IMG/VR virus record: IMGVR_UViG_3300037520_002383 | Location: 18,925-82,924 of that record | From: a virus | Length of the DNA: 64,000 nucleotides | Strand: one strand, 5' to 3' | In this document: positions 20,355-63,488 of the stretch, in pieces | How the letters are laid out: the number at the start of each line of letters is the position of its first letter | Position numbering within the stretch: the stretch's first letter is position 1 | The notes under the pieces: model-generated | Database searches by the model: none | Told to the model about the DNA's origin: nothing | Seen by the model: the letters and a program-made list of their open reading frames with translations, nothing else | Position numbers and translations under genes: made by a program

Positions 20355-20375
20355 GAGGCCTCCGGCGCCTCTTTT
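20355..20375 (+). terminator. Possible short terminator
   Basis: GAGGC (20355-20359) and GCCTC (20367-20371) with a 7-nt loop followed by TTTT. Short stem, so weak support; the TTTT lies just before the Shine-Dalgarno of the next gene. Confidence 0.35.
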
Positions 20376-20385
20376 GGAGACCAAG

Positions 20386-20640: not shown

Positions 20641-20665
20641 CGGCTTGCGACGTAGCTGGTAGGCT
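20637..20665 (+). promoter_or_regulatory. Sigma70-like promoter, leadered type
   Basis: TTGACG 20637-20642 (on the upstream stop), 17-bp spacer, TAGGCT 20660-20665. The ATG is 22 nt beyond, preceded by TAGGAG, so this transcript has a normal leader. Confidence 0.8.
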
Positions 20666-20687
20666 GCGACGCCATAGGAGTAGGCAT

Positions 20688-21245
20688 ATGCAAATCAACG
20701 AAGTCGTCGGTGACAAAAACACACGCACCTTCAGTATCGTCATCCGGCCCCAAGTGGGGGAGCGCCAGCGCCTACGCCACATCCGACTCAGCGAATCACT
20801 AGCCGACGACGACAGCCGCTGGGTCGTTTCCCGTTTCTGCAATGCACAGGATGCCGCATTCCGATGGCATACCCATGGCCTTGAACAGACGTCTTTCAAC
20901 AATGAAGAGGAGGCGATGGCGCTGTTCCAGTCTCTGGTGGCTGAGGCACAGGGCGGCAGCCAGCCGCGACTGGAGGTCATGCGCCGCCCCGTGGGAGTCG
21001 CCGATGATCGCGACATTGCCGCCTACATCCGCTGCCACCTGCAGCTGCTGGCGATGCGCGAAACCAAGCACTACCGCTGCCTCACCGTCACCGACGCCGT
21101 CTACCGGCGCCTTGATCGGCAGCCGCTGACGGAGACCGACATCAGGGTGCTGCGGGGCCTGCGATGGGGCCAAATCCACAACGTAGGCGTCGCCGCCGAC
21201 GGCCTGAAGGCCAACGTCCACAGCCAGTGCGACTCCGGCGACTGA
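20688..21245 (+). CDS. Hypothetical protein
   Basis: 185 residues from ATG 20688 with a TAGGAG Shine-Dalgarno. The first half is beta-rich (RTFSIVIRPQVGERQRLRHIRL), the middle acidic and helical, the end contains a helix-turn-helix-like stretch (CLTVTDAVYRRLDRQPLTETD). No known family. Own promoter. Confidence 0.76.
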   Translation: MQINEVVGDKNTRTFSIVIRPQVGERQRLRHIRLSESLADDDSRWVVSRFCNAQDAAFRWHTHGLEQTSFNNEEEAMALFQSLVAEAQGGSQPRLEVMRRPVGVADDRDIAAYIRCHLQLLAMRETKHYRCLTVTDAVYRRLDRQPLTETDIRVLRGLRWGQIHNVGVAADGLKANVHSQCDSGD

Positions 21246-33109: not shown

Positions 33110-33904
33110 TCAGCAGCCAACGCAGTCAACGCAGCTGTCCATGACGCGATCGGCGATCGGCATCAGACTTTGGCGTAGATCTTCTAGACTGCCAAGGTTG
33201 TCGATGACCGCGCCATTGCGGCTGCAGAAATCCAACATCTCTGGCGTCTGCTGATCCTTCTCCGAGGCATGGCTGGGGGTAGTAGAGACGAGACCGGGGC
33301 GGCGAATGAGGAGAGGGAAGCCACGGGACTTCTCGGCTTCGTTGAAGAAGCGAGCGTCCGAAAGCACGATGACGTCGAAGTCTGAATCCGCGACCTGACG
33401 CTTGAGGCAGTTGATCCAGACATCGGCATCGAGCGCACGGCCCCACTCAGTGCCGAGAGTCTGCAGGGCTCGACGAGCACTAAGCCCGCGTTGGCGTTGC
33501 AGCTGACGCCGGCAGTCGACCATCTCCCACGACCACGGCACCTCGGCCATCAGTTCGTTGAACCAATGGTCCAGCTCTCGACGCGCCCTGAGCCAGAACT
33601 CGGGTGTGGCGTCGGGCCAGCACTCGCCGACGAAGGCGCTGCCGCAGACCTTCAGATATTCGCGAGCCGACTCCCAGGCCTCCATGTTCAGATAGGTCGG
33701 CATTTCTTCTTCACGCGCCGATGACGGGCCATAAACATTCTCAAAGCTGAAACCAAAGACACCGCGACAAAAGCGCTTGATGGGCGTCGCGAAGGCGGCT
33801 TGAGTCACTCTCAGGCCGCGTTTGTCCAGCAACTCGCAGAAGATGTTGGCGGCCGTTGACTTGCCGGCACCGGCAGTACCAATCGGAACGATGAGAAGGG
33901 TCAT
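33110..33904 (-). CDS. Deoxynucleoside monophosphate kinase-like protein
   Basis: 264 residues from ATG 33904 behind AAGGAGG. P-loop IGTAGAGKST (about 8-17), a CRGVFGFSFENVYG region, ALQTLGTEWGRALDADVWINCL and DVIVLSDARFFNEAE, the standard order of T4 gp1-type dNMP kinases (Walker B-like VLSDARF). Converts dNMPs to dNDPs for phage DNA synthesis; such kinases can also accept modified nucleotides. Together with ThyX it supports a phage-controlled dNTP supply. Confidence 0.85.
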   Translation of the reverse strand: MTLLIVPIGTAGAGKSTAANIFCELLDKRGLRVTQAAFATPIKRFCRGVFGFSFENVYGPSSAREEEMPTYLNMEAWESAREYLKVCGSAFVGECWPDATPEFWLRARRELDHWFNELMAEVPWSWEMVDCRRQLQRQRGLSARRALQTLGTEWGRALDADVWINCLKRQVADSDFDVIVLSDARFFNEAEKSRGFPLLIRRPGLVSTTPSHASEKDQQTPEMLDFCSRNGAVIDNLGSLEDLRQSLMPIADRVMDSCVDCVGC

Positions 33905-33977
33905 GATAAGCGCAGCCTCCTTGCGGCCGATGATAGCACACACATCGACAATAGGCAACTATCACGCGCTTCTGCAG

Positions 33978-44121: not shown

Positions 44122-46362
44122 TCAGATAATCCAGTATGCACTACCGTCGGACTGCACGCGAACGGCTTCGTGCTGAGAATATAGCACATAGTTAGTTGTA
44201 CCATCGATGGTACCGGCGATCGTTACGGTATTGGAAGATGTATCGATTTTTTTGATGGTAAAATGATATTCATTCGCAGAAGCCGCCGACGGCAAAGTAA
44301 TGGTTACGGCCCCGGAAGCGGCATTGACCAAGATTGTTCCATCGAATGTAGTGACGAGGTAGTTGGCGGTTTTGGTTGAGATGGGCGTCTTGAGGGCCTG
44401 AGGCACTACCCAAGAGAGGTTGCCAGAAGCATCATTTGATAGGACTTGGCCATTCACGCTGGCCTGAGACGCCGGCCAGCTATAGGCAATATTATTGATG
44501 CGCGTCAGATTGCCAGAAGAGCTGACGCGAAACTGCGACGATGAGCCGACGGAAAAGAAATCAGTGGGGTTGCTCGTGCCAATACCGACGCTACCGCCTG
44601 CCGTAATCCTCATGCGTTCGGTGGCGGCGCTGGCGGCGCTGGTGGTGCCGAACGCCAAGTCCGCGGAAAGAGTTGAAACTCCGTGATTGGTAAATACCCC
44701 CCACAATGCCGCGCCTTGAACCAAGGAGCCGCCAGTGCCGTTGGAGGCAAGCGTCAGCGTGTAGTAGTTGTTGTTCGTTGTGTCGGTATTTGCGAGCACC
44801 ACGCCAGACGCATCGGCATTCAGCGTCGTGTTGCTTGACGCCTTTGTCGCGCGCAGGCCGTGAACGGTGTTGTCACCGACAATATGCGCGGTGGCGGCGG
44901 GCGTGTTGGTATTGATACCCAGCCGTTGATTCTTCGTGTCGATGCCGAGGATCGTGGTGCCCGTCGCGTTCTGCACCTGAAACGCGGTGGTGCTGTCTGA
45001 TGTGTTTCTCGCCGTAACGTAACCGCCGTCGGCGATCGTGAAGGCGGCCGTGCCGTTGTCGCGGGCCAGGAAAATCGAAGCCGCCTGCGGGCCGTTGTCT
45101 GCGATGAGCGCGGCATCGGTATTGACAAGCGACGCCGTGAAAGGCGAGGCGTCAGTGTACAGCGAGAAGTAGCCGCCGATGATGTTGTTGCTGCCAGCCG
45201 AACGGATCGAGCCGCCGTACACACCCACTGATTTACCGGCGTTGCCAAGCGAAAGCCCCTGAATACCGACACTCAAAGTCGATGATCCGCCCGAGTAGCC
45301 GAGTGCGCCGACGCGCGTGCCCGAACCCGTGGGGGTCGTGCCTGTCGTCGTGGCGACGCTTAGGATTGCGCCGAAGTTGGCCTTCAGGGCGCCAGTGAAC
45401 GGCGTGAATGCCAGGACGCCCGTGCCCTCGGCATTGTTCTGGGTAGAGAAACCGACCGTGCGCCCCACCCCGGTGTAGCCCGTAGCGAGTTCCGCCACCT
45501 GCGCAACGACGAATCCATCACTCGATCCCTGTGGAATGACGGAAAAGTAGTTGGCGGTTTCGTAGCTATTTGCAACCGGAGCCGCCAAAGTGGCCGTCGT
45601 CTTGAGCGCTTGCTGTCCGCTGGCAAGCGTACCAGCGACGACGTCTAGCTTATTTGCGGGTATGTTCGTGCCGAGGCCAAGCCTGTTGTCTGTATCGTTC
45701 CAAAACAGGTTGGCGTTGTCTTGTGCGTAGACGCCAGAAGCACCTGCGAAGACAATACTCCCCGATGTAAGGGCCGTGCCCGTGCCCGTGCCGCCGTTGG
45801 CAACCCCTAATATACCCGTCAGCGACGAAGTTGGGATCGTGGTCCATACGCCGTCAGCGCGCAGGTAGTTGGTGGTGCCGCCGCCCGACGCCGGCGCCAG
45901 GCCCTTCAGGCTGCTTGTGAAGACGCTAAGTAGGGCGGTGACTTGAGTTCCTGTCAAGTCTTCGGGGGCGCCAGTGCCAGCCGTCGTTCGGCCCTTTATG
46001 GTCGCCGTCGGCACAGCCGCCAACTTGGCGTTGGTGACTACGGCACTGTCGATCGTCCATGTAGTACCACCACCCGAGACCGTGATATCGCCCTTGTCGC
46101 CGTCTGTGGCTCCACCGCCACCGGTATCGATAACCCAAGTAAGGGGGCTGATCGCCGTGAGCTTATAGGCAAAGCCATCGGCTTGCACAGAAGCCCGCAT
46201 GCCGACCTTGAGTTTTTCCGTGGGGATCGCATCGCGCTCAGCGATGGTCGCCACGACCTGAAATCCACCCCAGATATCAGTGTCTTCAACGACGGGGAAG
46301 CTGAGGCCGTTTTTAGCCTTTACGGTATTGGCGACCTCAACGGGGCCGGGAATGGTAGTCAT
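44122..46362 (-). CDS. Tail fibre protein sharing the repeat module
   Basis: 746 residues; GGAGG Shine-Dalgarno. Starts TTIPGPVEVANTVKAKNGLSF, a short particle-attachment region. It contains one copy of the repeat module of the next gene (from residue 87, DGDKGDITVSGGGTTWTIDS), then long beta-helix-like sequence with Ala/Thr/Gly (residues 180-600), and ends with a small C-terminal domain (SKTANYLVTTFDGTILVNAAS). The last ~70 residues have the fold look of carbohydrate-binding fibre tips. Probably a second fibre subunit. Confidence 0.8.
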   Translation of the reverse strand: MTTIPGPVEVANTVKAKNGLSFPVVEDTDIWGGFQVVATIAERDAIPTEKLKVGMRASVQADGFAYKLTAISPLTWVIDTGGGGATDGDKGDITVSGGGTTWTIDSAVVTNAKLAAVPTATIKGRTTAGTGAPEDLTGTQVTALLSVFTSSLKGLAPASGGGTTNYLRADGVWTTIPTSSLTGILGVANGGTGTGTALTSGSIVFAGASGVYAQDNANLFWNDTDNRLGLGTNIPANKLDVVAGTLASGQQALKTTATLAAPVANSYETANYFSVIPQGSSDGFVVAQVAELATGYTGVGRTVGFSTQNNAEGTGVLAFTPFTGALKANFGAILSVATTTGTTPTGSGTRVGALGYSGGSSTLSVGIQGLSLGNAGKSVGVYGGSIRSAGSNNIIGGYFSLYTDASPFTASLVNTDAALIADNGPQAASIFLARDNGTAAFTIADGGYVTARNTSDSTTAFQVQNATGTTILGIDTKNQRLGINTNTPAATAHIVGDNTVHGLRATKASSNTTLNADASGVVLANTDTTNNNYYTLTLASNGTGGSLVQGAALWGVFTNHGVSTLSADLAFGTTSAASAATERMRITAGGSVGIGTSNPTDFFSVGSSSQFRVSSSGNLTRINNIAYSWPASQASVNGQVLSNDASGNLSWVVPQALKTPISTKTANYLVTTFDGTILVNAASGAVTITLPSAASANEYHFTIKKIDTSSNTVTIAGTIDGTTNYVLYSQHEAVRVQSDGSAYWII
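45834..46104 (-). repeat. Single copy of the fibre repeat in the neighbouring fibre gene
   Basis: ~270 bp unit encoding GDKGDITVSGGG to YLRADGVWT, the same module found four times in the gene at 41122. Dispersed copies offer targets for recombination between the two fibre genes. Confidence 0.8.
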
Positions 46363-48637: not shown

Positions 48638-49975
48638 TTATCTCCCACGGGGGTTACGGCTCGAAAGAGGGTGGCTGGCGTGACCAAGAATCGGTGGTGC
48701 ATTGCGGTCGGCGACTGAAGTCACCTGTCCTGCCCGCGCCTGAATCCATGACACTGTACCATCAGCATGCTTCACCTTGATCTTGCCGACTTTGCGTCGA
48801 TCGCCGGTTGGCCCGCCCTCAATCATCGTCCCCGGCGGCAGGTTCAGATGACGACGTTTGGCAAGTTCCTCTTTTTCCAAGGGCATGCAAGCTTCCAGAT
48901 CCGAGTAGTAGCGAGGAGATTCCTTCAAATGCGCAAGAGCGATCTTAGCGATCTCTTTGGCGTCGGTGCTGACGTCGGCGTGCTCGCGTTCATGCCTGAT
49001 GCCTTTCTGCCATTCCTCAGGAGAAATCACATCGAAGTCTACACCCAACTCTTCGCCCAGCCCCTGGGCTTCTGCCACCGAAACGCCATCCATGACATCA
49101 ACTTTTTCCGATTTCTTGACTTCGGACTTAGCTGGAAGCGCACGGGCCAGTTCAATGACGCCCTGAATCAGAGCCTCCACAGAGGCATAGGCCGCCGGAG
49201 AAGCTGCTTTGAGCTGTGCCAACATAGGCGCCTGTTGACGAACTTGCTGCAACACGCTCGCTATCTTCTTTTTGGTCTCAGTGAGTCTCTCGCTTTGTCC
49301 CTGATCTTGCTGTTCGTCGCCGGTGTCGGCAAGTTCATGCAGATCGTCGATGAGATCGGCGGCGTGCGTCATTTCTGGCGACGGTGGCGTCTCCGCACCC
49401 GCAATCGCCTCTGAAAGAGCCGCTTCGCCCTCGCTGTGTTCGCTGGCTTCCTTCATTGGCGACGCTGGCGCGGCGGCGGGCCGCGAACGCGAAAAGCCCG
49501 TAAAACCGCCGTGGGCACCCGGATTTTCCGATAAAGCCTTCTGAAGGTCTGGCTTGGCTCGACCGCCTTGTCCTTCGATGTCCTGGTCTAGCTTCGCCGC
49601 CACCTCTGCACTCCACAAAACAGGCGTGCCACCGCGATACTCAGCCGCATAGCGACGAGCCTGCAGAGCCTTTTCGATGCTGGAGCCAATACCTACAGCC
49701 ACACCCTTTTCATCCAGAGCCTCCTGAAATCGTTGTCGCTGTCGCATGACCTGAGGCAACGCCCGAGGCGGTACCGAAACCACGCCCTCGCTGCCCGAGA
49801 GCATAACTACGCCGCCACCCAGTGCCTGAGCCCACAACACCCAAGAATCTTGGGTTGCCTTTTGCATCAGCTGATGCAGTCGCTGCAATCCCTCAGAATG
49901 AGCCGCCGCCACCATCGGCGCCATGCGATGGCCCATGTGGCATTGCCAAGCAACGTACAGCTTTTGCTGGTTCAT
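48638..49975 (-). CDS. Large virion-region protein with nucleotidyl-cyclase-like N-terminus and DUF5661-like C-terminal part
   Basis: 445 residues. Residues about 5-130 (LYVAWQCHMGHRMAPM; GGGVVMLSGSEGVVSV; KGVAVGIGSSIEKALQARRYAAEYRGG) look like a degenerate GGDEF/cyclase-type fold without catalytic acidic residues. The middle is Glu/Ala-rich linker. Residues about 320-370 (WQKGIRHEREHADVSTDAKEIAKIALAHLKESPRYYSDLEAC) fit the DUF5661 pattern found in phage proteins. The final part has a strand-rich tail (KVKHADGTVSWIQARAG). Unknown function; possibly an internal virion protein. Confidence 0.6.
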   Translation of the reverse strand: MNQQKLYVAWQCHMGHRMAPMVAAAHSEGLQRLHQLMQKATQDSWVLWAQALGGGVVMLSGSEGVVSVPPRALPQVMRQRQRFQEALDEKGVAVGIGSSIEKALQARRYAAEYRGGTPVLWSAEVAAKLDQDIEGQGGRAKPDLQKALSENPGAHGGFTGFSRSRPAAAPASPMKEASEHSEGEAALSEAIAGAETPPSPEMTHAADLIDDLHELADTGDEQQDQGQSERLTETKKKIASVLQQVRQQAPMLAQLKAASPAAYASVEALIQGVIELARALPAKSEVKKSEKVDVMDGVSVAEAQGLGEELGVDFDVISPEEWQKGIRHEREHADVSTDAKEIAKIALAHLKESPRYYSDLEACMPLEKEELAKRRHLNLPPGTMIEGGPTGDRRKVGKIKVKHADGTVSWIQARAGQVTSVADRNAPPILGHASHPLSSRNPRGR

Positions 49976-50009: not shown

Positions 50010-51245
50010 TCAGCGCTTTAGTACCTGATCGGGATGCGTCAGGCCCATCTTGGCGCCCGCCTGATCGATCAAGCCCAAGGCCGTCTCCAGCGGCATCTTC
50101 TGCGTCGAAGGCACAAACCCCTCATCGGAGGGTTCGGTGAACTGGCCGGTGACGGCGCGATGAACGGCGTCATGCATCACCGTGTTGAGTTCCTTGTGAA
50201 AGACATCGTCGGGAATGTGCAAGCCGATCTTCTCCGACAACTCACGCTGCTTGTGAGCCGCCAGCCACTCCCAATGCACGGCCCGCTTAGCCTCGCGCAT
50301 GCTGCGATGAATGCCCAGTTTGCCGATGCGGCGCCCTTCCCCGTACATCTTGTTGAGTTCAGGATACACCAAGGCGTGAGACAGTTCGTGGATCTGACGC
50401 CAAGCATCGGTGTAGTCGCGATCGCCAAAATCGCCACCCGAAGCCGGCGTGGGATCGTAAACCATCAAGTGGTTCGTGTTGTAGTTGCGGTTGGCGAGAT
50501 CCGGCTTCCCGTGCTGGCCACCGGCATAGTAGGTCTGAAATCCGTGGTGGGCGACCAGATCACGAACTGCCGGCAGCTTGCCGCGGTAATCGTAGTGGAA
50601 GAGATCGCTCTTCGTCCCCGGACGAACTTCGCCGTAGGGCTTGGCGTAGTGGGCGTATGTCGACACCCCCACCCCCGCAGCCTGCTCGTTGGCGGACTTC
50701 GGCGGCGCATCCATATGAGGATGAGCGCCGGGCTTCGGCGGCGCCGGCGGATTGTCGGCCTTCGCCAGCCCCGCGAGGTGCATGCGCGTGTGGCCATCAT
50801 GCCACGGATAGGCGTGGGGGTGCGAGTAGCGTCCCCGCGGTGCCTCTGACTTCGCCAGAGCCTGCTCCTGCGGCAGGTGGCTGTCGGCGCCGTGGCCACG
50901 GAATCGATAAAGGCCTTTTTGATCCCGCAGACGCTGCGTGACTTCCGACGGCACGGGACCAATCGGCTCCATTCCCAAAGCCTTCAGGTGCTGCGAGTAC
51001 AGGGCGCCATGACGCTGTGCCTCTTCGATTGCACCCGCAGCCTTTGCCGTCCTGGCGCCCATCAGGTGATGGGCAGCAGCATTGAGGTGCTGCTCGCGGA
51101 CGTATTCGTCGTAGGTTTTGCGTTCGGCGGCTTCGCGCGTCAGGCCATGGCCGAACTCCAACACCGCCGCTCGACGATCGAGTTCGGCGGCATGTTTATC
51201 GTCAATCAGCCGTCGCCCCTGCCAAAGGCCATCATTCTTAGTCAT
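50010..51245 (-). CDS. HExxH metallopeptidase-like virion protein
   Basis: 411 residues from ATG 51245 (MTKNDGLWQG), overlapping the upstream stop (ATGACTAA). Helical N-terminal part with EFGHGLTREAAERKTYDEYVREQH, a His/Pro-rich linker (KPGAHPHMD), and a catalytic part with QIHELSHALVYPEL (HELSH about 286-290). It then has REAKRAVHWEWLAAH with acidic candidates for the third ligand. Located in the minus-strand virion block. Could be an injected or maturation peptidase. Confidence 0.68.
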   Translation of the reverse strand: MTKNDGLWQGRRLIDDKHAAELDRRAAVLEFGHGLTREAAERKTYDEYVREQHLNAAAHHLMGARTAKAAGAIEEAQRHGALYSQHLKALGMEPIGPVPSEVTQRLRDQKGLYRFRGHGADSHLPQEQALAKSEAPRGRYSHPHAYPWHDGHTRMHLAGLAKADNPPAPPKPGAHPHMDAPPKSANEQAAGVGVSTYAHYAKPYGEVRPGTKSDLFHYDYRGKLPAVRDLVAHHGFQTYYAGGQHGKPDLANRNYNTNHLMVYDPTPASGGDFGDRDYTDAWRQIHELSHALVYPELNKMYGEGRRIGKLGIHRSMREAKRAVHWEWLAAHKQRELSEKIGLHIPDDVFHKELNTVMHDAVHRAVTGQFTEPSDEGFVPSTQKMPLETALGLIDQAGAKMGLTHPDQVLKR

Positions 51246-52692
51246 GGCTTCGTACCCCATAGACATTATCCAAAAAAGCCAAGATGGCATTTTCTTTCCA
51301 TTTGCCACCGAAGGAAAGTAAGTACGAAGAATCCGTCTTTTCGAGTCTTACATCAGACGCCAGATCGCGGAAGCAATGGCATGCCTCAAAACGACCGTCA
51401 GCCGACAGCCGTTGACCATCGCAAACGCCACAGGCCGTAGACAGCTGTTTTTCTGAGAGACGTAGCGACGGCAACTTTATTGCAGTTGAATCCAGCTTAG
51501 GTTGTCGTGGCCGCAGTTTTGGGGGTTGACTCTGTTGGCGAGTAGGGGGATTGGGTGCCAATGGGCCACCCTGGGGGGTGGGTTTGTTGGCGGGCCCCGG
51601 CGCCTCCGTTCTTCCCTTGCCCGCCTTCTCTAGATCCGAGTGCAGTTGATTGAAGTCGAAGTAGTGCGTAAAAACACGACCGTCGGGAAGAATGGTATAG
51701 TAATCCTCAGGCTTTTGATTATGCCACTGAGTGCCTTGCCCCGGATGATATTTACCTACATTTTCACCATTGACCATCAACATCTTATGGCTAGCGCCAT
51801 CTGAATGAATAACCGATTCCTGTCCCAGATCTCGCGCCAGCCCCTCAATCAACTTCGGATTTTTGGGATTGTAAATGATGAGGGAGTTTTCGGGTCGGCC
51901 ATAGCTACCGACGGTCGGATGCGCGTCCTCTCCTGCATCCCGCAGATACTGAAGGGCCTGCTGATTGCTGAGATTTTTAGCTTGAGGGAACAGGGGGTTT
52001 TCAGCCGACATCAGGGTGTGGGGCGGCAGGGAAGATTCGTTCTTTTTCAAGGCTGAGGTCTTGTTCATCAAGCCAAGGAGTACATCCACCATCTTCTTTT
52101 CCAGCGTCGAGTATTTTGTGTCGATCTGCCAAGAATGAAGACGGAGATCGTCGGGTCGCACGCCCGTCAGCGTCAATACGCCAGCTTGGTGGTTGTTGCC
52201 ATCAAGAGCCCTGATGATGGTGCGCGGCGGCTCTTCCTGAACATCATATTCCTTTTCAAAAGAAAGGGTCTTTTCTGCGGCGCTTTTGCGCAGGACCGCA
52301 TGAGCCACCCGAGCCCGAACTAGCGCGTCTACGCTTTTGCCGAGACGATACAGATGATCGTCGCTCACGGCAACCGACACTCGCTGGCGCTCTAATCCAA
52401 GACCAACACCTAGCGCCGCCGCGACGTGCAACAGAGAAGCGTCTTGAAATGTATAGTTGATGTCGGCGACCGACATGCAGCCGCTAAAGCCGGCTTCTGT
52501 CTTTTGCAAGACCAGGCGTCCGCCGCCTCCCGGAATCTCACCGTCATAGCCGCGTCCAGCGAGGCTCAGCCACGCATATAGTGCGCGCGGCAGCATTGCG
52601 TTATCGAGATGCGGCAGCCTTTGGGCGGCCTTTTGCAGAGCCGCGGCCCCTTCCATCCCCACAAGCGCCGTCAAAATCTGATGTCGATCCAT
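51238..52692 (-). CDS. Large virion-region protein with C-terminal Cys cluster
   Basis: About 484 residues; start uncertain among GTG 52701, ATG 52698 and ATG 52692 (the last has the best spacing to AGG). The segment NSLIIYNPKNPKLIEGLARDLGQESVIHSDGASHKMLMVNGE is a fold also met in phage internal proteins. A Pro-rich linker is followed by CGVCDGQRL...CHCF. Function not recognised. Coupled to both neighbours. Confidence 0.65.
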   Translation of the reverse strand: MDRHQILTALVGMEGAAALQKAAQRLPHLDNAMLPRALYAWLSLAGRGYDGEIPGGGGRLVLQKTEAGFSGCMSVADINYTFQDASLLHVAAALGVGLGLERQRVSVAVSDDHLYRLGKSVDALVRARVAHAVLRKSAAEKTLSFEKEYDVQEEPPRTIIRALDGNNHQAGVLTLTGVRPDDLRLHSWQIDTKYSTLEKKMVDVLLGLMNKTSALKKNESSLPPHTLMSAENPLFPQAKNLSNQQALQYLRDAGEDAHPTVGSYGRPENSLIIYNPKNPKLIEGLARDLGQESVIHSDGASHKMLMVNGENVGKYHPGQGTQWHNQKPEDYYTILPDGRVFTHYFDFNQLHSDLEKAGKGRTEAPGPANKPTPQGGPLAPNPPTRQQSQPPKLRPRQPKLDSTAIKLPSLRLSEKQLSTACGVCDGQRLSADGRFEACHCFRDLASDVRLEKTDSSYLLSFGGKWKENAILAFLDNVYGVRSHD

Positions 52693-52697
52693 AGTCA

Positions 52698-53591
52698 TCA
52701 CCTGGGGCTAAATGTGCCGACACGCGGCGCTGGAGCTTGTCGCGGAGTTACGGGAGGCGACAGAGCGTCGCCTTCAACGGGCGCCGACTCCGACTCAAAC
52801 AAGTATTCTCTCTGAATAGCCAAACTCATGGGCATACGCTGAACGCGACTCGTCCCGTCTGGCATCTCGCCTCTCGCCACACGCACTTCGTGCATGAGCT
52901 GTGTCACATACCAATAGGGGCGATAGAGGTAGCGAATGCCACATACCACACCCCCATCGCCCGGTATCGGCCCCTTGGGTCGGCGGCGGTCATCCCACAC
53001 AATCATCCCATGATCAATAGTAAAATCTACGTTTTGTGCGTAGCGATTGCCGTCGCTATCGACAAGATCGACTACATACTCAACGGGAAAACTGCAACGG
53101 TCCTTGCCAGTGATGGAACACTCAAAGACCTCCCAGTTTGTCACAAAGATGCCGGGCTCAGTCAAATACAACCTATCATATTTCGTGGCATAAAACGGGG
53201 TTTGCGTACTATCATAAAATCTAGGAGTAGTGACTTGGGCTACGCCATCTCCCACCAAACCGCCGGTTGTCTGACGATCAACGGCGTTGTTGCCGGTAAA
53301 GATGGCGGTGATTTGACCGCCGAGAGTATACAAGAATCCGTGACTGCAACCAGGATGATTATCATGCATTTTGCGGATGTCGGTCGTCGTAGCTAGACCA
53401 ATCGGACAGCGCATGGCACGATAATGCAGGAACTGAACGCCGTGGCTGAAGATGGCGTTATCGAAAGCATCAGTATCAAAAGACGAGGCGTCGCGAGGGA
53501 AATCGGCGACTAGGGCCACAGCAGGCGGTGGCTCTGAAATCGTCTGACCGCCGATAATGGGATAAGTAGAAGTTTTGATGCCACTCGACAT
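52698..53591 (-). CDS. Virion structural protein
   Basis: 297 residues. Reads like a known large-myophage structural protein: FDTDAFDNAIFSHGVQFLHYRAMRCPIGL near the N-terminus with IRKMHDNHPGCSHGFLY. The middle has KYDRLYLTEPGIFVTNWEVFEC, and RYLYRPYWYVTQLMHEVRVARGE precedes the C-terminal Pro-rich tail. Probably neck or head-tail connection. Exact role not known to me. Confidence 0.68.
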   Translation of the reverse strand: MSSGIKTSTYPIIGGQTISEPPPAVALVADFPRDASSFDTDAFDNAIFSHGVQFLHYRAMRCPIGLATTTDIRKMHDNHPGCSHGFLYTLGGQITAIFTGNNAVDRQTTGGLVGDGVAQVTTPRFYDSTQTPFYATKYDRLYLTEPGIFVTNWEVFECSITGKDRCSFPVEYVVDLVDSDGNRYAQNVDFTIDHGMIVWDDRRRPKGPIPGDGGVVCGIRYLYRPYWYVTQLMHEVRVARGEMPDGTSRVQRMPMSLAIQREYLFESESAPVEGDALSPPVTPRQAPAPRVGTFSPR

Positions 53592-53951: not shown

Positions 53952-56045
53952 TCAGAGCCCAGCCCACAGACCATTTACGAATCGTCCGAGATCGCCGGCG
54001 GCATTTTTGATTTGACGGAGACGCATGATCTCGGGTCGGGGGTCGATATCGAATGACCTTAGCACGTCAGCCATGACATCTTCCGACAATCCGGCCAACC
54101 AAGACTTCATGCGCATGGCGGCCGCTGCTGGTAGATCGGGCATGACCGCCAGCTTGTCTTTCGGCGCAAAGGTGTTGAAAGTTGATCCAAAAGGCAACAT
54201 AAATCGCAGGTAGTAGGGGGTAAATGACTGGCGATCGTGTGCGGGATCAAAATGAACTCCCGCAAATGTCGAGCCATGATCGATCAATCGGATCTCGCCA
54301 TCTGGATTCATCAGCATGTTGTGGCCATGGCGATCGCCGTTGCCAGCCACCCAATCCAATACCGACCATTGCCATATTCGACCGCGCAAGCGATAGGACT
54401 CCAGCGCCGACAAAACTCGTCCGGCGTCGTCTTCGCGAATGTCAATCAGAGGACGGTATTCGGCGGGAAGAAAGAAAATAGCCGCATAAAGTTTGTCGCC
54501 ATCAACCCTCATCCATTCGGTGCGGGAGAGATCTGCAGCCAGCCCCCAAGAGCGCGCTAACTGCCAAAAGGCGCTCTCACGAGCGCTTGGCGGCGAAAGA
54601 TCATCCTCAATGCCCTTTATGGGCCCCGCACGACCACTACCCGGCTTCATGTACCAACTACCACTGGGCGTGTCGATAAAGAAAGAACCGGCGCTGTGTC
54701 GGCCATCAAGGTGAGCGGGTCGAGCTGAAAAGATGTTCTGGTTCAGAAGCTCAGCGACATCTTCTCCGCTTGAATGCATTGCCTCTACCCGTGACTGCGG
54801 GGTTACCGGTAGATCGGCAAGATGTTTTGAAGAATCCGATGCCCCAAGACGATCGCCTTGGTTTTTGATCAAGACTTCGGTTTTTACGAGTGGCATCATT
54901 TCGACAGCCGATTTCAGGATGTCGCGATTTTCCGGCGTATCAAGCCAATCAATAGCCGCCAAGGCCGTGGCCACGGGGTCAGCGTCATTCAGCCATGCAA
55001 GCTCACGAATATGTCGTAGAGTGTCGTCGTCGTCTCGTACCTTGCCGCCAGTCAACGATAATGCTGTGCGCCAATGCGCGTATATACTCGGTGGCAAAGT
55101 CAACAATGCGTCGCGAGCCGCTTCTGATTTATGCAGACGCGCGGTAGACATATAATCAGCAATCCGCTGAGAAATATCTAATGAGATATTACGCATCATC
55201 GCCAGATGACGCAATGCGTCCATATCATTTTCCCTAATCGCCGTTTCCATCCATTCTTCAGCGTCGTCTTCGGTGAGCGGCGCCGACAAGGGCACTCGAT
55301 ACCAGGCCTCTTGCGGCGTTACTAGTTGTTCCCAAAACTGCCGCCAGACATCTTCAGGCATCAGAGCCTGCACATCGGGGCTAGCGCCGTCAATGAACAA
55401 AAGCAAGGGATTCTCTTGGAACGGCAGATCGGCTGGCGAACGCTGCGCCAGATGACGATAAAGGGTGGGCACGAACTGCAGTGGCAGGGTCGGCTGCAGG
55501 GCATCCAATAAATGTTGGCCATCGCCTGCTGATTCTATATCTAGCCGCTTCAGCAACGCATCGCGCCCATCGTCCGTTCGCAGATGTCGGGCGTTGTATT
55601 CGCTGGCCGCGGGATGGCCGATGATATCAAGGAGTCGATGCAGCTGAACGTGTCGCACTACATCACACCAAGCCTTAGCGTCATGCAAATGATGAATGAT
55701 ATCCGATGCCGGCAAATCATTCACAACTCGGTTTACGATCGCCCGTGAAACATGTCGAGGGCCAAAGCCCGGCATCGTCGTCGCCAGCGCCCTCTCTCGC
55801 GCATCGGGGTCGGAAATGGCCCTGAAGGCATCCTCTTCTTCTTCGGGAGCAGGCTGAAACGGAACGACTTCCTCGCCCTTATGATTCAAAAACCACTCAT
55901 GGGCCGTTGCACGAATGGCCGCAGACGCCGCGGCGTTGTTGAGGTCGTCAACACTCGCCAAAGCGGAGGCAATCTCGCTGCGCCCCGATCTGGGGTTCAG
56001 TACGATTCTCTCGGCCGCCTTCAATGTCGCGATTACGTCGCTCAT
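53952..56045 (-). CDS. Large protein with C-terminal protein-kinase-like (HipA/PI3K-type) domain
   Basis: 697 residues. Residues about 1-430 are mostly helical with no recognised family. Residues 450-610 form a kinase-like core: SAGSFFIDTPSGSWYMKPG with candidate ATP-binding K467, SARESAFWQLARSWGL (E490, the pairing Glu), the catalytic motif VAGNGDRHGHNMLMN (D571, R572, H573, N576), and the metal-binding motif IRLIDHGSTF (D589). This order is that of HipA-like, PI3/4K-like and Fam20C-like kinases. All key residues appear present. ATGA overlap with the giant gene upstream suggests co-expression with virion proteins, so it might be injected. Confidence 0.75.
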   Translation of the reverse strand: MSDVIATLKAAERIVLNPRSGRSEIASALASVDDLNNAAASAAIRATAHEWFLNHKGEEVVPFQPAPEEEEDAFRAISDPDARERALATTMPGFGPRHVSRAIVNRVVNDLPASDIIHHLHDAKAWCDVVRHVQLHRLLDIIGHPAASEYNARHLRTDDGRDALLKRLDIESAGDGQHLLDALQPTLPLQFVPTLYRHLAQRSPADLPFQENPLLLFIDGASPDVQALMPEDVWRQFWEQLVTPQEAWYRVPLSAPLTEDDAEEWMETAIRENDMDALRHLAMMRNISLDISQRIADYMSTARLHKSEAARDALLTLPPSIYAHWRTALSLTGGKVRDDDDTLRHIRELAWLNDADPVATALAAIDWLDTPENRDILKSAVEMMPLVKTEVLIKNQGDRLGASDSSKHLADLPVTPQSRVEAMHSSGEDVAELLNQNIFSARPAHLDGRHSAGSFFIDTPSGSWYMKPGSGRAGPIKGIEDDLSPPSARESAFWQLARSWGLAADLSRTEWMRVDGDKLYAAIFFLPAEYRPLIDIREDDAGRVLSALESYRLRGRIWQWSVLDWVAGNGDRHGHNMLMNPDGEIRLIDHGSTFAGVHFDPAHDRQSFTPYYLRFMLPFGSTFNTFAPKDKLAVMPDLPAAAAMRMKSWLAGLSEDVMADVLRSFDIDPRPEIMRLRQIKNAAGDLGRFVNGLWAGL

Positions 56046-59000
56046 GTTTCACCGTAGGCTGCAGCAATGGCCTTGCCCTTCTGATACTCTTTCTGCGCCG
56101 TCTTCAGGTATTCGTCAAGATGTTTCGACGTACCGTCTGAAATCAGCCAGTCTTTCAGGTTGTCGTGCAGCGACTCATAACCCCTGTTCCAGCCCATGGA
56201 CGACTTCGGTTCCATGTCGTTGTTCATCATGATTAGGGAGATGATGTTGCCGAGACGCGCGTCCTCGATACCACCACCCCTTGACGGGCTGCGTTTGGCC
56301 AGCAGGGCATGGTTGACAACGGCGTTGTTGAGGCGTTCGTTGTCGCCATCGATTTCTCTTCGATGAGCAAAGGCGACGAGACGCGCAAACTGAGCACAGT
56401 TGTGCGTGTAGGCCATCGGGATCTTTGCGTCCACCTCGCCGGTGTCGGTGAAATGGAAGAAGTGCTTAGCCTCACGCCGCTTCTGATCTTCCTCGGCGGT
56501 TGCGGCTGGCGGCAGCATGTGGCTGAGGGCGACGTCGTGCGAGTAGTGACGAGCCGGGATCTCGGTCGTCGCCTCTTCCATCGCCGCCTGCGGTCTCATG
56601 CCCTTTCCACGCGACTCGTAGTCGTGATCGCGGTGTGAAACGCTGTGAAACAGTTCGTGCATCACCACAGACCAATGGTCGTGGTGGGCGTCGAGGTCGA
56701 AGGCTGCCGATCCGCCAAGAGACTCCATGAAGCGGCCGGCGTGGTTATCATGCACCTTGACGCCGCCACCGTCTTTGGCGACATAGACGCCGCCAACATT
56801 GGCGCCCAGCTGCTCGCCGCTGGCCCTGCCGACCGACGTCAACGGCAGCGACTGACCGCCTTCGTTGATACCGGTGACATGCGCTAGACCACGGCGTAGA
56901 CGCTGAAAGTGAGATAGGTTTCGGGCGTCGTCGAATGCTGCGCCCCACTTGCCTAATGTATCTGCATGCACCTGCGCTATCGCCTTGCTGCGCAGGTCAC
57001 CAGAGGCCGCGGAGGCCGCGCGCATGGCCTTGTTGTGGGCTGCACGGATGTCGCTGGGCTGATGCGGGAAGGCGAAGTCCTCGTGCTTGGGTATGAACGA
57101 AGGGTCGATCTTCGGCGGCGGCCGATTCACGAAGTCCATCTTCTTGAGGCGCTCAGCGGCGGCACCGGCGTGTGCCGGCTCCTGCCAGAACTCATCCTGA
57201 CCATAGGCGCGGACGACGCCCATCGGCTGCTTGGCTAGATGCGTGGGCTCCTTGGTCTTCAGGGCCTTCCAGAACTCGTGGTTGCCCGTCGGCTCGCCAA
57301 TCGGCTTCTCGGCCTTCAGGAGATAGGAATAGGCGCCGGCACCGTCGTCGTAGTCCGAGCCCAACTTCGCATTCGGCTTGTACTCCGGCTCGTAGGCCAT
57401 GCCATGTTTTTGCGCCAAGTGTTGATGGGTGCGCGAAGCCGCCGTTGAGTGCTCCTGACCCGCGACACTGCGCAGCCCCAAATGGTTCTTGGCATGGGCC
57501 AGAAGTGCCTCATACATTGCCACTCCCAGCCCCTGTCGCCTCAGAGCGCGATGTAGGAAGGTGTTCGTGATGTTGAGTGTCTTGCCGTCGACGCCACCGG
57601 AGGCAGTACCCACTTGCTTGCCTTCGCTGTTGTAGAGTCGCACATGGGGTGTACGGCCGCCTGACGCCTTGATATCCATCACGCGCAGCGACAGTCCCTG
57701 ACTGCGATGTTCAGGCGTCAGCAGATGGTTGTAGTCAAAGGTATTTGCGTCGATCCTCTGCCCAACGGGAATATCCTTGAGCGCCATCTTCTGGAGATCG
57801 ACCTGCGACTTCCGCAGGAAGGTCTCTCGGTACGGGCCGTAGGAATCCAGTGCCTCCTGAGCGTCGGTAACGTGAGGAATGTTGCCGCCAGCCACGGAAT
57901 AAAGGCGTGTGATGGGGCGACCGCTGAAGTCGTTCTCGGTGATGAAGCGCTTGTCGGGATTGTCAAGAGCCTCGTCGAGTTTGTGGAAGGAGTAGCCGTT
58001 CAGCGTCGTAGACGCCACGGGCTTCTCGTCCCAAACCTCAGACGTTTGTGCGTAGTGCCTCTCGGGAGTCTCTGGAGTCCCCTTAGCTCCAGTGACGCCG
58101 GGAGTCGCAAGGATCTTGTCCCAGACCTTGTTGGCTGTCGGCGAAACCGACGAGTCGCTGCGCATCGTCCCGTGGTACCGCAGCATGCGGCGGTAGAGCA
58201 GGGTGCCGTAGCCCGTGCCCTGGGCGCTGGCGTGCGTTGCCGTCTCGCCGTGTTCAACTGCGCCATCACCGCGAACTGTGGCTGCCGACGACGACACGGC
58301 GAACCCAGTGGGCTCCTTGTCGTAGGAGAGTATGTGGGTCACCGCATAGCCGCCGTGATCGTACGGCGTGTGCTTCACGACGTGATGGTACAGCGGCTTT
58401 TCGCGGGCATGTGACTGCTCGCCCGGCGGACGCTGATTGTGCGGAACCTGATATGTCTCGACACTCTGCAGCCCGCCCTCATACTCACTGGCGCGATGAG
58501 GCCTCATGGCCCCCTGCGCAACCTCATAAGCCATTTTCTTCAGCGTGCGGGGCTTGATCTGCACTTTCGCCGGCGCCTTCATGCCCTGCATCGTCTTCAT
58601 GTATTCTTTGACGTAGCCGGACTTGGCGATCTGTTGAGGCGTGGCCTTGAGGGCGGCACCGCGGCCCCAGCGCCAGCCATAGGCTGTGCGCTCTGGCGTC
58701 TTCAGCTTGTCCTTCAGCCACTGCCAGTGATCGGAGGCGACCTCGTTGTAGAACTTGGAATCATTGTGAAACTTAGCCGTAAACTCTTCTGGATCAAGTC
58801 CCGGATACTTGGCTTGCAGCGCCTTACTATTCTGATACTGATCGTATGCAGAAATAGGCTTCATACCCAGAGCACCATACGCTGTATGAAATACTCCCTT
58901 GGAGTGAGGCTCGTGGTGTACGTTTTTACCAAAAGAAGATTCTAGGTGCGCAACGGGATGGAGGCCCGGATGCAAACCCTCTGCCGTCCATTTGCTGGGG

Positions 59001-60010
59001 TCTGTTTTGGGTGGAGGCGCCGATAGAACTTGGGGCTGAGTAACCTCCACGGCCGCCGAGGGCGACAATACCGGACCATGTAGTTGGCTTCCCAAAGCAA
59101 ATCCGCCAAGGCCAATAGCCGCCGCCAGTGCCTTTTCCTTCAGCCCCTTTTCAAGCCGGTGGCTGTCGCCGAGGTGCAGTGTCGGCAGTGCGTCGGCAAC
59201 CAACTGCACATCAGCCTCAGTCGCCGGGCTTTCGGCGTCAGGCATCTTTTGGTGCTGGATGTCGACGACGCTGACGGGCTGATGAGTATGAATCTGCTCG
59301 TTGTTGAGCCACTTTCCGGCCCATTCGTTGGCTGCGTGGTCACCATAGGCGTCATGAATCGTGTTGCCAACACGAGCGCCGACGTGGTGAATGTCATCCC
59401 CCAGCTGAATGCCGACGAGCCTTGCCTCTGGATGCTTCTTTTGGATGGCCCTCGCCAGCAGATTGCAGCCGCCGGCGTGCCATGACGACCCCGCGGCGGC
59501 GGTCTGATCGAGTACGCCGTAGCTTTCGTTGGACCCGCACCACTCAGCGAGCCCCGAGCTTTTCACGAGATCGGGATCCCAATCCTGCATTCCCAGCAGC
59601 CTCAGGGTGACGTTGCGGGGGGAATGCAGGTGGTCGCCGATCTCCTTTGGCAGACCGTCGCTGACATTGACCCAGCGCCATTCGCTGCATTCGTTGTCGG
59701 GGTCTTCTTCTGTCGTCACCCGAGGCTTCTCGGCGTCGTGCAAAACAACTTGATAGGCATGAACAAGGATTCGGCGCTTGCCGGAGTCGACGACCTCGGC
59801 GCCCAAGGATTCCAAGACCTCCTGGGTCTGCAGGCCCGTTTCTTCCTGAAGTTCACGGACAGCGCCGTCGTAGGCATCTTCGCCTTCATCTAGATGGCCA
59901 CCCGGCAATGTCCAGCGGCCATTATCCCGGCGGCGACCCCAAAGCATATCGCCCGCATCATCAAAGACGGCAATGGAGGCGACTTCGACGGCATCTTTGG
60001 TATCAGCCAT
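56042..60010 (-). CDS. Giant multi-enzyme fusion: Nudix, muramidase-like, two GNAT-like and HExxH modules
   Basis: 1322 residues from ATG 60010 (MADTKDAVEV) behind AAGGA; a GTG at 60025 overlaps the upstream stop and is an alternative. Modules in order: Nudix hydrolase (about 5-145; complete Nudix box 38-60 with REL-EETGL). A Cys-His-Asp type segment (SWHAGGCNLL, IHHVGAR, DAYGDH; C182, H208, D220), possibly papain-like. A hydrophobic stretch about 293-315. Muramidase/transglycosylase-like part (about 350-435; HLESSFG with E357, then AYGALGMKP). GNAT-like 1 (about 550-635; AQGTGYGTLLY). GNAT-like 2 (about 775-875; RRQGLGVAMYEALL). Zinc metallopeptidase (about 1000-1180; VMHELFHSVSH with HELFH 1118-1122 and EE 1145-1146). 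Probably a virion-carried protein that acts during or after DNA entry. Confidence 0.78.
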   Translation of the reverse strand: MADTKDAVEVASIAVFDDAGDMLWGRRRDNGRWTLPGGHLDEGEDAYDGAVRELQEETGLQTQEVLESLGAEVVDSGKRRILVHAYQVVLHDAEKPRVTTEEDPDNECSEWRWVNVSDGLPKEIGDHLHSPRNVTLRLLGMQDWDPDLVKSSGLAEWCGSNESYGVLDQTAAAGSSWHAGGCNLLARAIQKKHPEARLVGIQLGDDIHHVGARVGNTIHDAYGDHAANEWAGKWLNNEQIHTHQPVSVVDIQHQKMPDAESPATEADVQLVADALPTLHLGDSHRLEKGLKEKALAAAIGLGGFALGSQLHGPVLSPSAAVEVTQPQVLSAPPPKTDPSKWTAEGLHPGLHPVAHLESSFGKNVHHEPHSKGVFHTAYGALGMKPISAYDQYQNSKALQAKYPGLDPEEFTAKFHNDSKFYNEVASDHWQWLKDKLKTPERTAYGWRWGRGAALKATPQQIAKSGYVKEYMKTMQGMKAPAKVQIKPRTLKKMAYEVAQGAMRPHRASEYEGGLQSVETYQVPHNQRPPGEQSHAREKPLYHHVVKHTPYDHGGYAVTHILSYDKEPTGFAVSSSAATVRGDGAVEHGETATHASAQGTGYGTLLYRRMLRYHGTMRSDSSVSPTANKVWDKILATPGVTGAKGTPETPERHYAQTSEVWDEKPVASTTLNGYSFHKLDEALDNPDKRFITENDFSGRPITRLYSVAGGNIPHVTDAQEALDSYGPYRETFLRKSQVDLQKMALKDIPVGQRIDANTFDYNHLLTPEHRSQGLSLRVMDIKASGGRTPHVRLYNSEGKQVGTASGGVDGKTLNITNTFLHRALRRQGLGVAMYEALLAHAKNHLGLRSVAGQEHSTAASRTHQHLAQKHGMAYEPEYKPNAKLGSDYDDGAGAYSYLLKAEKPIGEPTGNHEFWKALKTKEPTHLAKQPMGVVRAYGQDEFWQEPAHAGAAAERLKKMDFVNRPPPKIDPSFIPKHEDFAFPHQPSDIRAAHNKAMRAASAASGDLRSKAIAQVHADTLGKWGAAFDDARNLSHFQRLRRGLAHVTGINEGGQSLPLTSVGRASGEQLGANVGGVYVAKDGGGVKVHDNHAGRFMESLGGSAAFDLDAHHDHWSVVMHELFHSVSHRDHDYESRGKGMRPQAAMEEATTEIPARHYSHDVALSHMLPPAATAEEDQKRREAKHFFHFTDTGEVDAKIPMAYTHNCAQFARLVAFAHRREIDGDNERLNNAVVNHALLAKRSPSRGGGIEDARLGNIISLIMMNNDMEPKSSMGWNRGYESLHDNLKDWLISDGTSKHLDEYLKTAQKEYQKGKAIAAAYGET

Positions 60011-60021: not shown

Positions 60022-60873
60022 TCACAGTGCGCCGACGACGATCTTCTTTCCGAAGATGTTTCGAAGATGCCCCATCAACGTCTTTTTCTGTTCCTGCAAC
60101 TCCATCACTCGCTGCTGGAAGAGATTGGCGCCGGCAACCGATACCGACTGCGAAAGACCATCGATGCCCAGACTATGGCTGCCGACCAAGGCAAATGTGG
60201 GCGCCAGAATCCCCAGGGTCTCTATGGCCGCGATGACGGCCACCAACTCATTGACCAAGGTCGGTAGCTGGCCATCCGGAAAGCCTGCTGTGTATTCAAT
60301 AGTCCAATAAGCGGGAATGCGTCCGGTCATCGTCATATGATGCATCATTGCCAGGCCATAAGGCGAGCCAGTGCCGAGTGCGGCGAATGTGGCGCCGGTG
60401 TTGGCCGGCGACAGCGGCAGGATGTAGACTTGACCACGAGCCAGGTAGCCGGGTTCAATCCATTGCGGCGGCACCGTCCAGACGTCGACGCCGTTGCTGT
60501 CTTGAATCGAAAGCTTATCGACGCTTGACGCCGGACGATTATCTAGGCGAAAATATCCATAGCTATCAAACTCCTGACGGTCAAACGCCTTGCGTTCACG
60601 AAACTTAGTGGGCATCAGCGTCAATCGCGTTTCGGTTTCTAGCATCATCACAGCGCGGCGGATGATGTCTTTCAGTAACTCATCCGTGATACGCGGCGCA
60701 GGATCGTTGGAACGAGCCTGACGCCAGGCGCTGTGCAGTGGCAGCCCCCAAAGCTTACGCATATGCAGCTGCTCTGGCGTTACCAGTGGCTCTAGCCGTT
60801 GCCACGCTGTTTCAATGGCATTGGGCAAATAAAGATCTTTACCAATAGACTTAGAGTTGCCATAATCAGCCAT
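60022..60873 (-). CDS. Virion structural protein, head-tail/neck candidate
   Basis: 283 residues. Helical start, then KLSIQDSNGVDVWTVPPQWIEPGYLARGQVYILPL (beta), AYWTIEYTAGFPDGQLPTLVNELVAVIAAIETLG and an ending helix EQKKTLMGHLRNIFGK. The EYTAGF..G..P..V...V...A pattern recurs in gp6-like connector and neck proteins. Role inferred from that and from its place at the head of this block. Confidence 0.66.
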   Translation of the reverse strand: MADYGNSKSIGKDLYLPNAIETAWQRLEPLVTPEQLHMRKLWGLPLHSAWRQARSNDPAPRITDELLKDIIRRAVMMLETETRLTLMPTKFRERKAFDRQEFDSYGYFRLDNRPASSVDKLSIQDSNGVDVWTVPPQWIEPGYLARGQVYILPLSPANTGATFAALGTGSPYGLAMMHHMTMTGRIPAYWTIEYTAGFPDGQLPTLVNELVAVIAAIETLGILAPTFALVGSHSLGIDGLSQSVSVAGANLFQQRVMELQEQKKTLMGHLRNIFGKKIVVGAL

Positions 60874-62774: not shown

Positions 62775-63488
62775 TCAATCCTCCTTCAGCAGTGATGGTG
62801 ACCAGTGACTGAAATACCGCGGCATCTCAGGCTGGATGACTTGCCACATCTTTGTGACGAGAATGCGGAACTCCTTGTCGGCGACCTCAGCATCGCGGCG
62901 CGGGAACATTTGCAAAAAAGCCGCAGCGTTGCCGCTCCACGTCAGTCGCGTCTCGATGCCGTTCGGCAGGATGCGAGCCGCAGCGCCCTGAGCCGTTTTC
63001 CGGTCATGCCCCTTGGCCACCATGTGCTCCACGACGCCCCTGTAGGCGTTTCGCCAAGCGCTATCAAACTTCGCTAGTTTCTCGTGCAACTCAGGCGACA
63101 AGTCATCGAGATCTGGATGCATCATCACCCGCGACTCGGCCTCGGAAACGTAACGGGTGCTGCGTTGGCTGGGGCTGAAACCGACGTGATGCCGCACAAG
63201 CTCGTGGCTCAGATTGCGGGTAACGCCCGTGATCCACAGCACGAAGTGGCTGTGGTAAAGCACGTTTGGATGATAGTGCTCCAAGATATTTGCATGAAAG
63301 TCATCGCTGTTGCGGCCTCGGCCAAAGGAGTCGTAGCAACCGCGACCTGCAAACTCGGCGATTTTTTCGCCTTCCGTCCCTTGCATTTGATCGGGACGAC
63401 AACGCCGGAACTCCTCGATGTCATCGCCGACAAAAGAGGGTCTGGCAATCAAGCGAACGCTAATCGGAGAAGAATCAATCTGAGTCAT
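62775..63488 (-). CDS. thyX: Flavin-dependent thymidylate synthase ThyX
   Basis: 237 residues, a usual length. Signature ELVRHHVGFSPSQRSTRYV fits the ThyX motif RHRxxSxNxxSxR with RHH in place of RHR. Also present: CYDSFGRGRNSDDFHANILEHYHPNVLYHSHFVLWITGV, and ETRLTWSGNAAAFLQMFPRRDAEVADKEFR in the C-terminal half. Makes dTMP from dUMP with methylene-THF, FAD and NADPH. Phage ThyX raises thymidylate supply during replication. It partners functionally with the dNMP kinase at 33110. Confidence 0.92.
   Translation of the reverse strand: MTQIDSSPISVRLIARPSFVGDDIEEFRRCRPDQMQGTEGEKIAEFAGRGCYDSFGRGRNSDDFHANILEHYHPNVLYHSHFVLWITGVTRNLSHELVRHHVGFSPSQRSTRYVSEAESRVMMHPDLDDLSPELHEKLAKFDSAWRNAYRGVVEHMVAKGHDRKTAQGAAARILPNGIETRLTWSGNAAAFLQMFPRRDAEVADKEFRILVTKMWQVIQPEMPRYFSHWSPSLLKED

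What the first reader, a model, noticed from the sequence alone, without database searches (positions are those of the whole stretch)
56042..60010. 1322-residue phage protein combining Nudix, muramidase-like, GNAT-like and metallopeptidase modules
One gene carries a complete Nudix box, a Cys/His/Asp peptidase-like segment, an ESSFG...GALG muramidase-like part, two acetyltransferase-type CoA loops (GTGYG, RRQGLG) and an HELFH zinc site. Its place among virion genes suggests a packaged, injected multi-tool acting on the cell wall, on nucleotides and on host proteins. I know of no described phage protein with this combination.
Basis: partly seen in the sequence, partly recalled or inferred. Interest (0 to 1): 0.88.

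Follow-up and report, generated by a model that had tools for sequence, protein, structure and literature searches.

The report
Modular phage head-gene "multi-tool" protein
This phage gene encodes one long protein that strings together several unrelated enzyme modules, which related phages keep in the same gene slot but reorder, add and drop; it belongs to a known class of proteins thought to be carried in the virus particle and injected into the host, and it comes with a previously unreported linker signature that may mark where it is cut.

Summary
The ORF is real: minus strand, 1322 aa, intact, conserved. Nudix (Pfam 2e-20) and one GNAT (Pfam 5e-10; 92 PDB fold hits) are solid. A second GNAT-like module and a YunG/papain-like Cys-His-Asp module have weak independent support. 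The "muramidase" segment is a genuinely conserved domain, but its lysozyme assignment rests on motifs. The HELFH "zinc site" is unproven: a shuffled protein gives 0.3 HExxH. The gene sits in a head-gene block syntenic with Myxococcus phage Mx1. In related phages the same slot holds the same modules in different order, plus ART-PolyVal, ParB-like and PI3K-like kinase modules. This is a polyvalent protein (Iyer et al. 2017, PMC5512222), so the kind is known and the exact architecture is new. New here: the tripeptide KSE (context [LVM]-x-K-S-E) is strongly enriched in head genes of these phages (Mx1: 17 in the head block, 2 elsewhere, p 8e-10) and absent from Mx1 tail genes. Looser L-x-K-[SAGMTQ] sites fall at module junctions (8 of 9 in this protein). 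Best model: a head-targeted polyprotein, cut at L-x-K linkers by the maturation protease and/or its own C-terminal module, whose enzymes are injected with the DNA. Packaging, cutting and injection are inferred.

The parts
56042..60010 (-). polyvalent protein gene, 1322 aa (frame open upstream to GTG 60025)
   Evidence: full-length ortholog L003:10001-14476, 77-79% identity
59588..59989 (-). Nudix hydrolase module, residues 8-141; Nudix box 59831-59899
   Evidence: Pfam PF00293 1.9e-20; complete box, 0 expected by chance
59558..59569 (-). junction LVKS (residues 148-151), where the ortholog L003 carries an extra ART-PolyVal module between Nudix and the YunG-like module
   Evidence: alignment; ART-PolyVal 4.2e-16 in P0003, absent from G000
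59201..59533 (-). YunG-like, papain-fold-like Cys/His/Asp module, residues 160-270 (C182, H208/H209, D220)
   Evidence: Phage_YunG-like E 0.006, below cut-off; predicted helix after Cys then strands carrying His and Asp (low pLDDT 56-72)
58559..58990 (-). transglycosylase-like helical module, residues 341-484 (E357 in LESSFG, GALGMKP, AYGWRWG)
   Evidence: conserved in 7 phages, invariant ES/GAxGxKP/AYxWRWG; helical, pLDDT about 80; assignment to SLT is motif-level only
57941..58468 (-). probable divergent GNAT module 1, residues 515-690 (GTGYG 598-602)
   Evidence: predicted GNAT-like order of elements
57326..57778 (-). GNAT module 2 (RimI/SpeG-like), residues 745-895, RRQGLG
   Evidence: Pfam 5e-10; model pLDDT 59-89; Foldseek PDB GNATs
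56045..57013 (-). C-terminal helical module, residues 1000-1322, with HELFH at 56645-56659: candidate zincin, unproven
   Evidence: HExxH helix followed by a Glu-rich helix in a low-confidence model; no profile support
53952..56045 (-). adjacent PI3/4-kinase-like gene, 697 aa; fused to the polyvalent protein in three relatives
   Evidence: Pfam PF00454 2.3e-6; fused in P0004-P0006 at 1.6e-8 to 3e-9; Mx1 'kinase' homolog
60022..60873 (-). upstream virion gene (tail fibre/head-tail adaptor PHROGs), directly before the polyvalent gene in all relatives compared
   Evidence: phrog_772 1.9e-21; synteny in Mx1, G004, G005, G002

Best explanation
The gene encodes a phage-type polyvalent protein of the Mx1-like phages. 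It is made late with the head proteins, directed into the prohead, and carries independent enzyme modules (Nudix; YunG-like thiol module; transglycosylase-like module; two GNATs; candidate zincin at the C-terminus). The modules are probably separated at L-x-K-[S/A/G/M] linkers by the phage maturation protease and/or the C-terminal module. They are then injected with the DNA to pass peptidoglycan, hydrolyse nucleotide-diphosphate signals (ADP-ribose/NAD-type) and acetylate host proteins. Shown: modules Nudix and GNAT2, head-block synteny, module reordering/gain/loss between orthologous slots, junction location of the linker motif, head-gene enrichment of KSE. Inferred: packaging, cutting, injection, substrates.
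For: Nudix and GNAT profiles, GNAT fold. Full-length 77% ortholog with an extra ART-PolyVal. Mx1 slot has matching modules in another order: GNAT2-GNAT1-ART-Nudix-transglycosylase-like. Further relatives L005-L008 swap in ParB-like, kinase, HEAT and other GNAT modules. Gene order conserved with Mx1: terminase, portal, protease, MCP, then the connector gene, polyvalent gene, kinase, tail sheath. GNAT2 fused to a MuF-like minor head protein in L010. KSE is the most enriched tripeptide in Mx1 and G005 head genes (7.7e-10, 2.2e-11), also enriched in G002 and G004. It is order-specific and 4-6 fold over composition shuffles in those four, and absent from 6103 residues of Mx1 tail genes. L-x-K-[SAGMTQ] sites lie in junctions: 8 of 9 here, p 4e-5. 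Literature frame: PMC5512222, PMC9503650.
Against: No virion proteomics. The protein itself has no KSE, only degenerate L-x-K sites, and KSE enrichment in its own genome is weak (4 vs 2, p 0.02; 5 of 500 shuffles reach it). The zincin and transglycosylase assignments lack profile support. The looser junction motif was chosen after looking at the sequences, and domain borders are partly mine. The Mx1 homolog lacks the C-terminal module, so self-cutting cannot be general.
Confidence: 0.7

Rival explanations
1. The protein is mainly structural: a large inner-head or neck protein whose enzyme-like modules are decorations acting during assembly, staying in the particle intact and not injected.
For: Slot is constant next to a tail-fibre/adaptor-like gene and before the tail sheath; a protein of this size could be a head or neck component.
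Against: Module order and content change freely between relatives, unlike a structural protein; Nudix, ART and GNAT have no obvious assembly role.
Confidence: 0.15
2. It is a late-expressed intracellular enzyme polyprotein that is not packaged, used in the infected cell for nucleotide clean-up and host protein modification, next to nucleotide genes (ThyX, dNMP kinase) in the same block.
For: ThyX lies close by, and Mx1 has thymidylate synthase and dNMP kinase genes in the same block.
Against: Peptidoglycan-type module, MuF-GNAT fusion in L010 and head-specific KSE linkers point to particles.
Confidence: 0.13
3. A rival on the linker only, compatible with the main explanation: KSE / L-x-K linkers are merely flexible or recombination-favouring linkers, without proteolysis.
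For: Junctions are where modules are swapped; linkers are generally polar.
Against: KSE sites in Mx1 use many different codon combinations, so there is no DNA-level repeat; only the order KSE, not the other five permutations, is enriched; the gene upstream of MCP (scaffold position) carries 2-4 KSE.
Confidence: 0.4

Closest known systems
Polyvalent proteins (Iyer et al. 2017, PMC5512222), e.g. phage P1 DdrB, N4 virion RNAP fusions
   Same: Several unrelated enzyme domains in one chain, late virion gene context, RimI-like GNAT, lysozyme and MPTase themes, ART-PolyVal in the ortholog, MuF fusion of a module
   Different: Nudix is present in every full-slot relative examined here although Nudix is mentioned only once in that paper (in the InPase section); YunG-like module; MPTase not confirmed; repeated reshuffling within one conserved gene slot; KSE/L-x-K linker signature
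Myxococcus phage Mx1 'NUDIX hydrolase' WNM70333
   Same: Same gene slot, Nudix, two GNAT-type modules and transglycosylase-like module, 31-44% identity per module; YunG-like module proposed as shared
   Different: Different module order, extra ART and ParB-like modules, no recognisable C-terminal candidate zincin
Head-fused or late-cluster phage Nudix proteins (NudE-type; MuF/portal/protease fusions, PMC9503650; PHROG portal-Nudix phrog_15528)
   Same: Nudix joined to head-associated proteins, proposed to be packaged and to act on ADP-ribose/NAD compounds
   Different: Here Nudix is one of about six modules in a stand-alone gene; NCBIfam matches are generic (RppH, NadM-Nudix), far below cut-offs
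T7 gp16 N-terminal transglycosylase (injected)
   Same: Glu-Ser landmark and later AY(N/W)xG landmark align in the same order
   Different: Not significant (hhalign probability 2%, E 0.026); no shared family profile

Membership tests
Polyvalent protein (phage type) | two or more domains with disparate biochemical activities in one polypeptide | tested here: met
   Nudix plus GNAT by Pfam and fold search; ART, ParB-like and kinase in relatives
Polyvalent protein (phage type) | encoded among late virion genes of a portal-terminase phage | tested here: met
   synteny with Mx1 terminase-portal-protease-MCP-connector-sheath block
Polyvalent protein (phage type) | domains drawn from the polyvalent domain network, with variable architectures | tested here: met
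   ART-PolyVal in ortholog and Mx1; RimI-like GNAT; MuF fusion in L010; reshuffled order
Polyvalent protein (phage type) | packaged and injected with DNA | not testable with these tools
   needs virion proteomics and ejection assays
Zincin-like MPTase of polyvalent proteins | HExxH helix plus second helix with Glu on a zincin core | tested here: inconclusive
   HELFH 1118-1122 present, 0.30 expected by chance; no Pfam match; low-confidence model
SLT / lysozyme-type muramidase | family profile match and catalytic Glu in a lysozyme-like fold | tested here: inconclusive
   ES and AYxWRWG landmarks invariant; no Pfam or PDB profile match; hhalign to T7 gp16 not significant
Nudix hydrolase | Gx5Ex7REUxEExGU box within the Nudix domain | tested here: met
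GNAT acetyltransferase (module 2) | GNAT fold with R/Q-x-x-G-x-G/A CoA loop | tested here: met
GNAT acetyltransferase (module 1) | GNAT fold with CoA loop | tested here: inconclusive
   E 0.015; E 3e-4, probability 38%; weak
YunG / papain-fold thiol module | YunG profile match with Cys, His, Asp in order | tested here: inconclusive
   sub-threshold in three homologs; secondary structure fits

The most novel reading that the evidence does not exclude
In Mx1-like phages, [LVM]-x-K-(S/A)-(E) is the recognition site of the head maturation protease. It trims scaffold, portal and major capsid protein, and it also cuts a cassette-built polyvalent polyprotein into separate enzymes inside the prohead, so any module that carries this linker can be swapped into the slot and be delivered.
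Probability: 0.35. Interest if true: 0.72.

Novelty: new variant of a known kind. Interest (0 to 1): 0.52.

Why it matters
It shows a single conserved head-gene slot in which injected-type effector modules are reordered, gained and lost between related phages, giving a natural series for studying how polyvalent proteins evolve. The KSE/L-x-K linker code, if it is a protease site, would explain how such long chains become separate tools and would let packaged effectors be predicted from sequence in this phage group. Mx1 is an isolated phage of a culturable host, so the tests are direct.

Tried and rejected
(1) Large open frames on the opposite strand of the high-GC DNA (e.g. 955 aa antisense in L003) were treated as chance. 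(2) Full-protein search of bacterial genomes gave no relative, so a host origin could not be traced. (3) Searches with the C-terminal module alone found only the same ortholog; comparison with the HETQH modules of L005-L007 was negative. (4) A T4 gp32-like similarity of the transglycosylase-like module (E 0.014-0.027) was rejected as weak and partial. (5) Structure models of both halves are poor overall (pLDDT 49.5 and 45.0); fold search of the first half was uninformative. (6) Proline racemase (E 0.009) over the first GNAT segment was rejected: partial, below cut-off, while the GTGYG loop and the shared pattern fit GNAT. (7) NAD salvage as a constant partner of Nudix/ART: only Mx1 has NAMPT, not G000-G005. 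(8) Literature on Mx1 virion proteins or Lys-type prohead cleavage: nothing usable found.

Full report
Observation. The frame at 56042-60010 on the minus strand is intact and 1322 residues long; its plus-strand counterpart is full of stops. The window is part of an 82.9-kb virus record. A full-length ortholog (77-79% identity, 1491 aa) lies on a 131.6-kb viral contig.

Modules in order. Residues 8-141 are a Nudix domain (PF00293 1.9e-20) with a complete Nudix box, for which shuffles give 0. Residues 160-270 are a Cys/His/Asp segment with sub-threshold matches to YunG-type families here (0.006), in the ortholog (0.002) and in the proposed Mx1 counterpart (1.6e-4). In the model a helix starts near Cys182 and strands follow that carry His208/209 and Asp220 (modest confidence). 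Residues 341-484 form a helical domain present in seven phages, with invariant Glu-Ser, GAxGxKP and AYxWRWG. The landmarks follow the order seen in lytic transglycosylases, but no profile search or hhalign comparison reaches significance, so 'muramidase-like' is a lead. Residues 515-690 are a probable divergent GNAT. Residues 745-895 are a confident GNAT (92 solved structures at E<=1e-3, the listed ones GNATs such as RimI and SpeG). Residues 1000-1322 are helical with HELFH; HExxH occurs 0.3 times per shuffled copy, and there is no profile support, so the metallopeptidase is unproven.

Surroundings. Directly upstream lies a gene matching tail-fibre/head-tail adaptor PHROGs (60022-60873); downstream lies a PI3/4-kinase-like gene (53952-56045), then further genes syntenic with Mx1, down to a contractile tail sheath (34580-37126, phrog_279 4e-33). 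Genes of this block have homologs in the same order in Myxococcus phage Mx1 and in 165-170 kb viral contigs.

Relatives of the slot. In Mx1 the corresponding gene (1479 aa, annotated 'NUDIX hydrolase') carries matching modules in another order, GNAT2 - GNAT1 - ART-PolyVal - Nudix - transglycosylase-like, then a ParB-like part; ParB-like there is from sequence pattern, a PHROG ParB match being found for the L007 protein. The close ortholog has an ART-PolyVal between Nudix and the YunG-like module. L005, L006 and L007 have Nudix first, then different combinations of GNAT, ParB-like, transglycosylase-like, HEAT-like and HExxH modules, and end with the kinase that is a separate gene in the window. 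L008 begins with the YunG-like module and places Nudix third. In L010 the second GNAT is fused to a MuF-like minor head protein. The first GNAT type also occurs in another multi-module protein, L053.

Linker signature. Reading the junctions suggested a recurring K-S-E. An unbiased test of tripeptides put KSE first in Mx1 head genes (17 versus 2 elsewhere, 7.7e-10; still first, 5e-8, without the polyvalent protein) and first in G005 (18 versus 1, 2.2e-11), with enrichment in G002 (10 vs 5, 7e-6), G004 (11 vs 9, 8e-4), G001 (6 vs 4, 3e-3) and the window's own record (4 vs 2, 0.02). Mx1 and G005 are related, so they are not fully independent. Only the order KSE is enriched, not its permutations; in Mx1, G005, G002 and G004 none of 500 composition shuffles reaches the count, whereas in G001 and G000 6 and 5 of 500 do. 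Codons differ between sites. In Mx1, six tail/baseplate/spike-region genes (6103 residues) hold none versus 17 in 10644 head-block residues (p 6e-4). The gene in scaffold position holds 2-4 copies in four genomes. The preferred context is [LVAM]-x-K-S-E. The looser L-x-K-[SAGMTQ] lies in module junctions in 8 of 9 cases in this protein, 9 of 11 in the ortholog, 7 of 9 in Mx1; this looser pattern was defined after seeing the sequences, so those p-values are optimistic. The major capsid N-terminus and the segment after the protease domain share a [LI]xKA[LM]xAG peptide. A protease site is the simplest reading, but no cleavage has been observed.

Mechanism. Most likely this is a head-directed polyprotein whose modules are delivered at infection: transglycosylase-like to pass the wall, Nudix to degrade NDP-X compounds such as ADP-ribose derivatives, GNATs to acetylate host proteins, and protease(s) to separate the parts. 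The delivery logic follows the polyvalent-protein proposal and the proposal that head-fused Nudix domains are packaged against NAD/ADP-ribose signals. Nothing here shows packaging, cutting or injection directly.

Verdict. What is new is this architecture family with a shuffled conserved slot, and the linker signature.

Noticed in passing
Mx1 head block (OR576727.2 5500-42300), L015-L048: Tripeptide KSE, in context [LVM]-x-K-S-E, is a strong signature of head-block genes and nearly absent elsewhere in Mx1 and G005; weaker in G002, G004, G001, G000.
   Followed up: partly
Mx1 19703-21103 and 13002-16721; same pairs in G002, G004, G005: A [LI]xKA[LM]xAGxxxxxPSxLxxGxALQxE-type peptide is shared by the N-terminus of the major capsid protein and the stretch after the prohead-protease domain; only the protease copy was seen in G001 and G006.
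   Followed up: partly
L010:7191-8453: MuF-like minor head protein fused to the same GNAT family as module 2 of the window protein.
   Followed up: partly
Mx1 13002-16721 (P0011): Annotated prohead protease is a 1239-aa protein with long extra C-terminal parts; its homologs in relatives differ in length (1062-1569 aa).
   Followed up: no
window 41122-44106, 44122-46362, 48638-49975: Further virion-block genes are much longer in the close relative G001 (994 vs 1539, 746 vs 1440, 445 vs 611 aa), suggesting module gain or loss there as well.
   Followed up: no
window 51238-52701: Sub-threshold S-adenosylmethionine lyase match (E 0.024) in a virion-block gene that matches two Mx1 head-block genes.
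   Followed up: no
window 62775-63488 and 33110-33958: ThyX and a homolog of the Mx1 deoxynucleoside monophosphate kinase lie within the virion gene region.
   Followed up: no
L053:2765-5374: Another multi-module protein (869 aa) with the GNAT1-type module and an HYSxxPGLxxLDPxFxGTG domain also seen in L005, L006 and L008.
   Followed up: no
Mx1 119182-119679, 124119-124673, 126021-127421: Mx1 encodes macro-domain, NMN adenylyltransferase and nicotinamide phosphoribosyltransferase genes; the last was not found in the other phages searched.
   Followed up: partly
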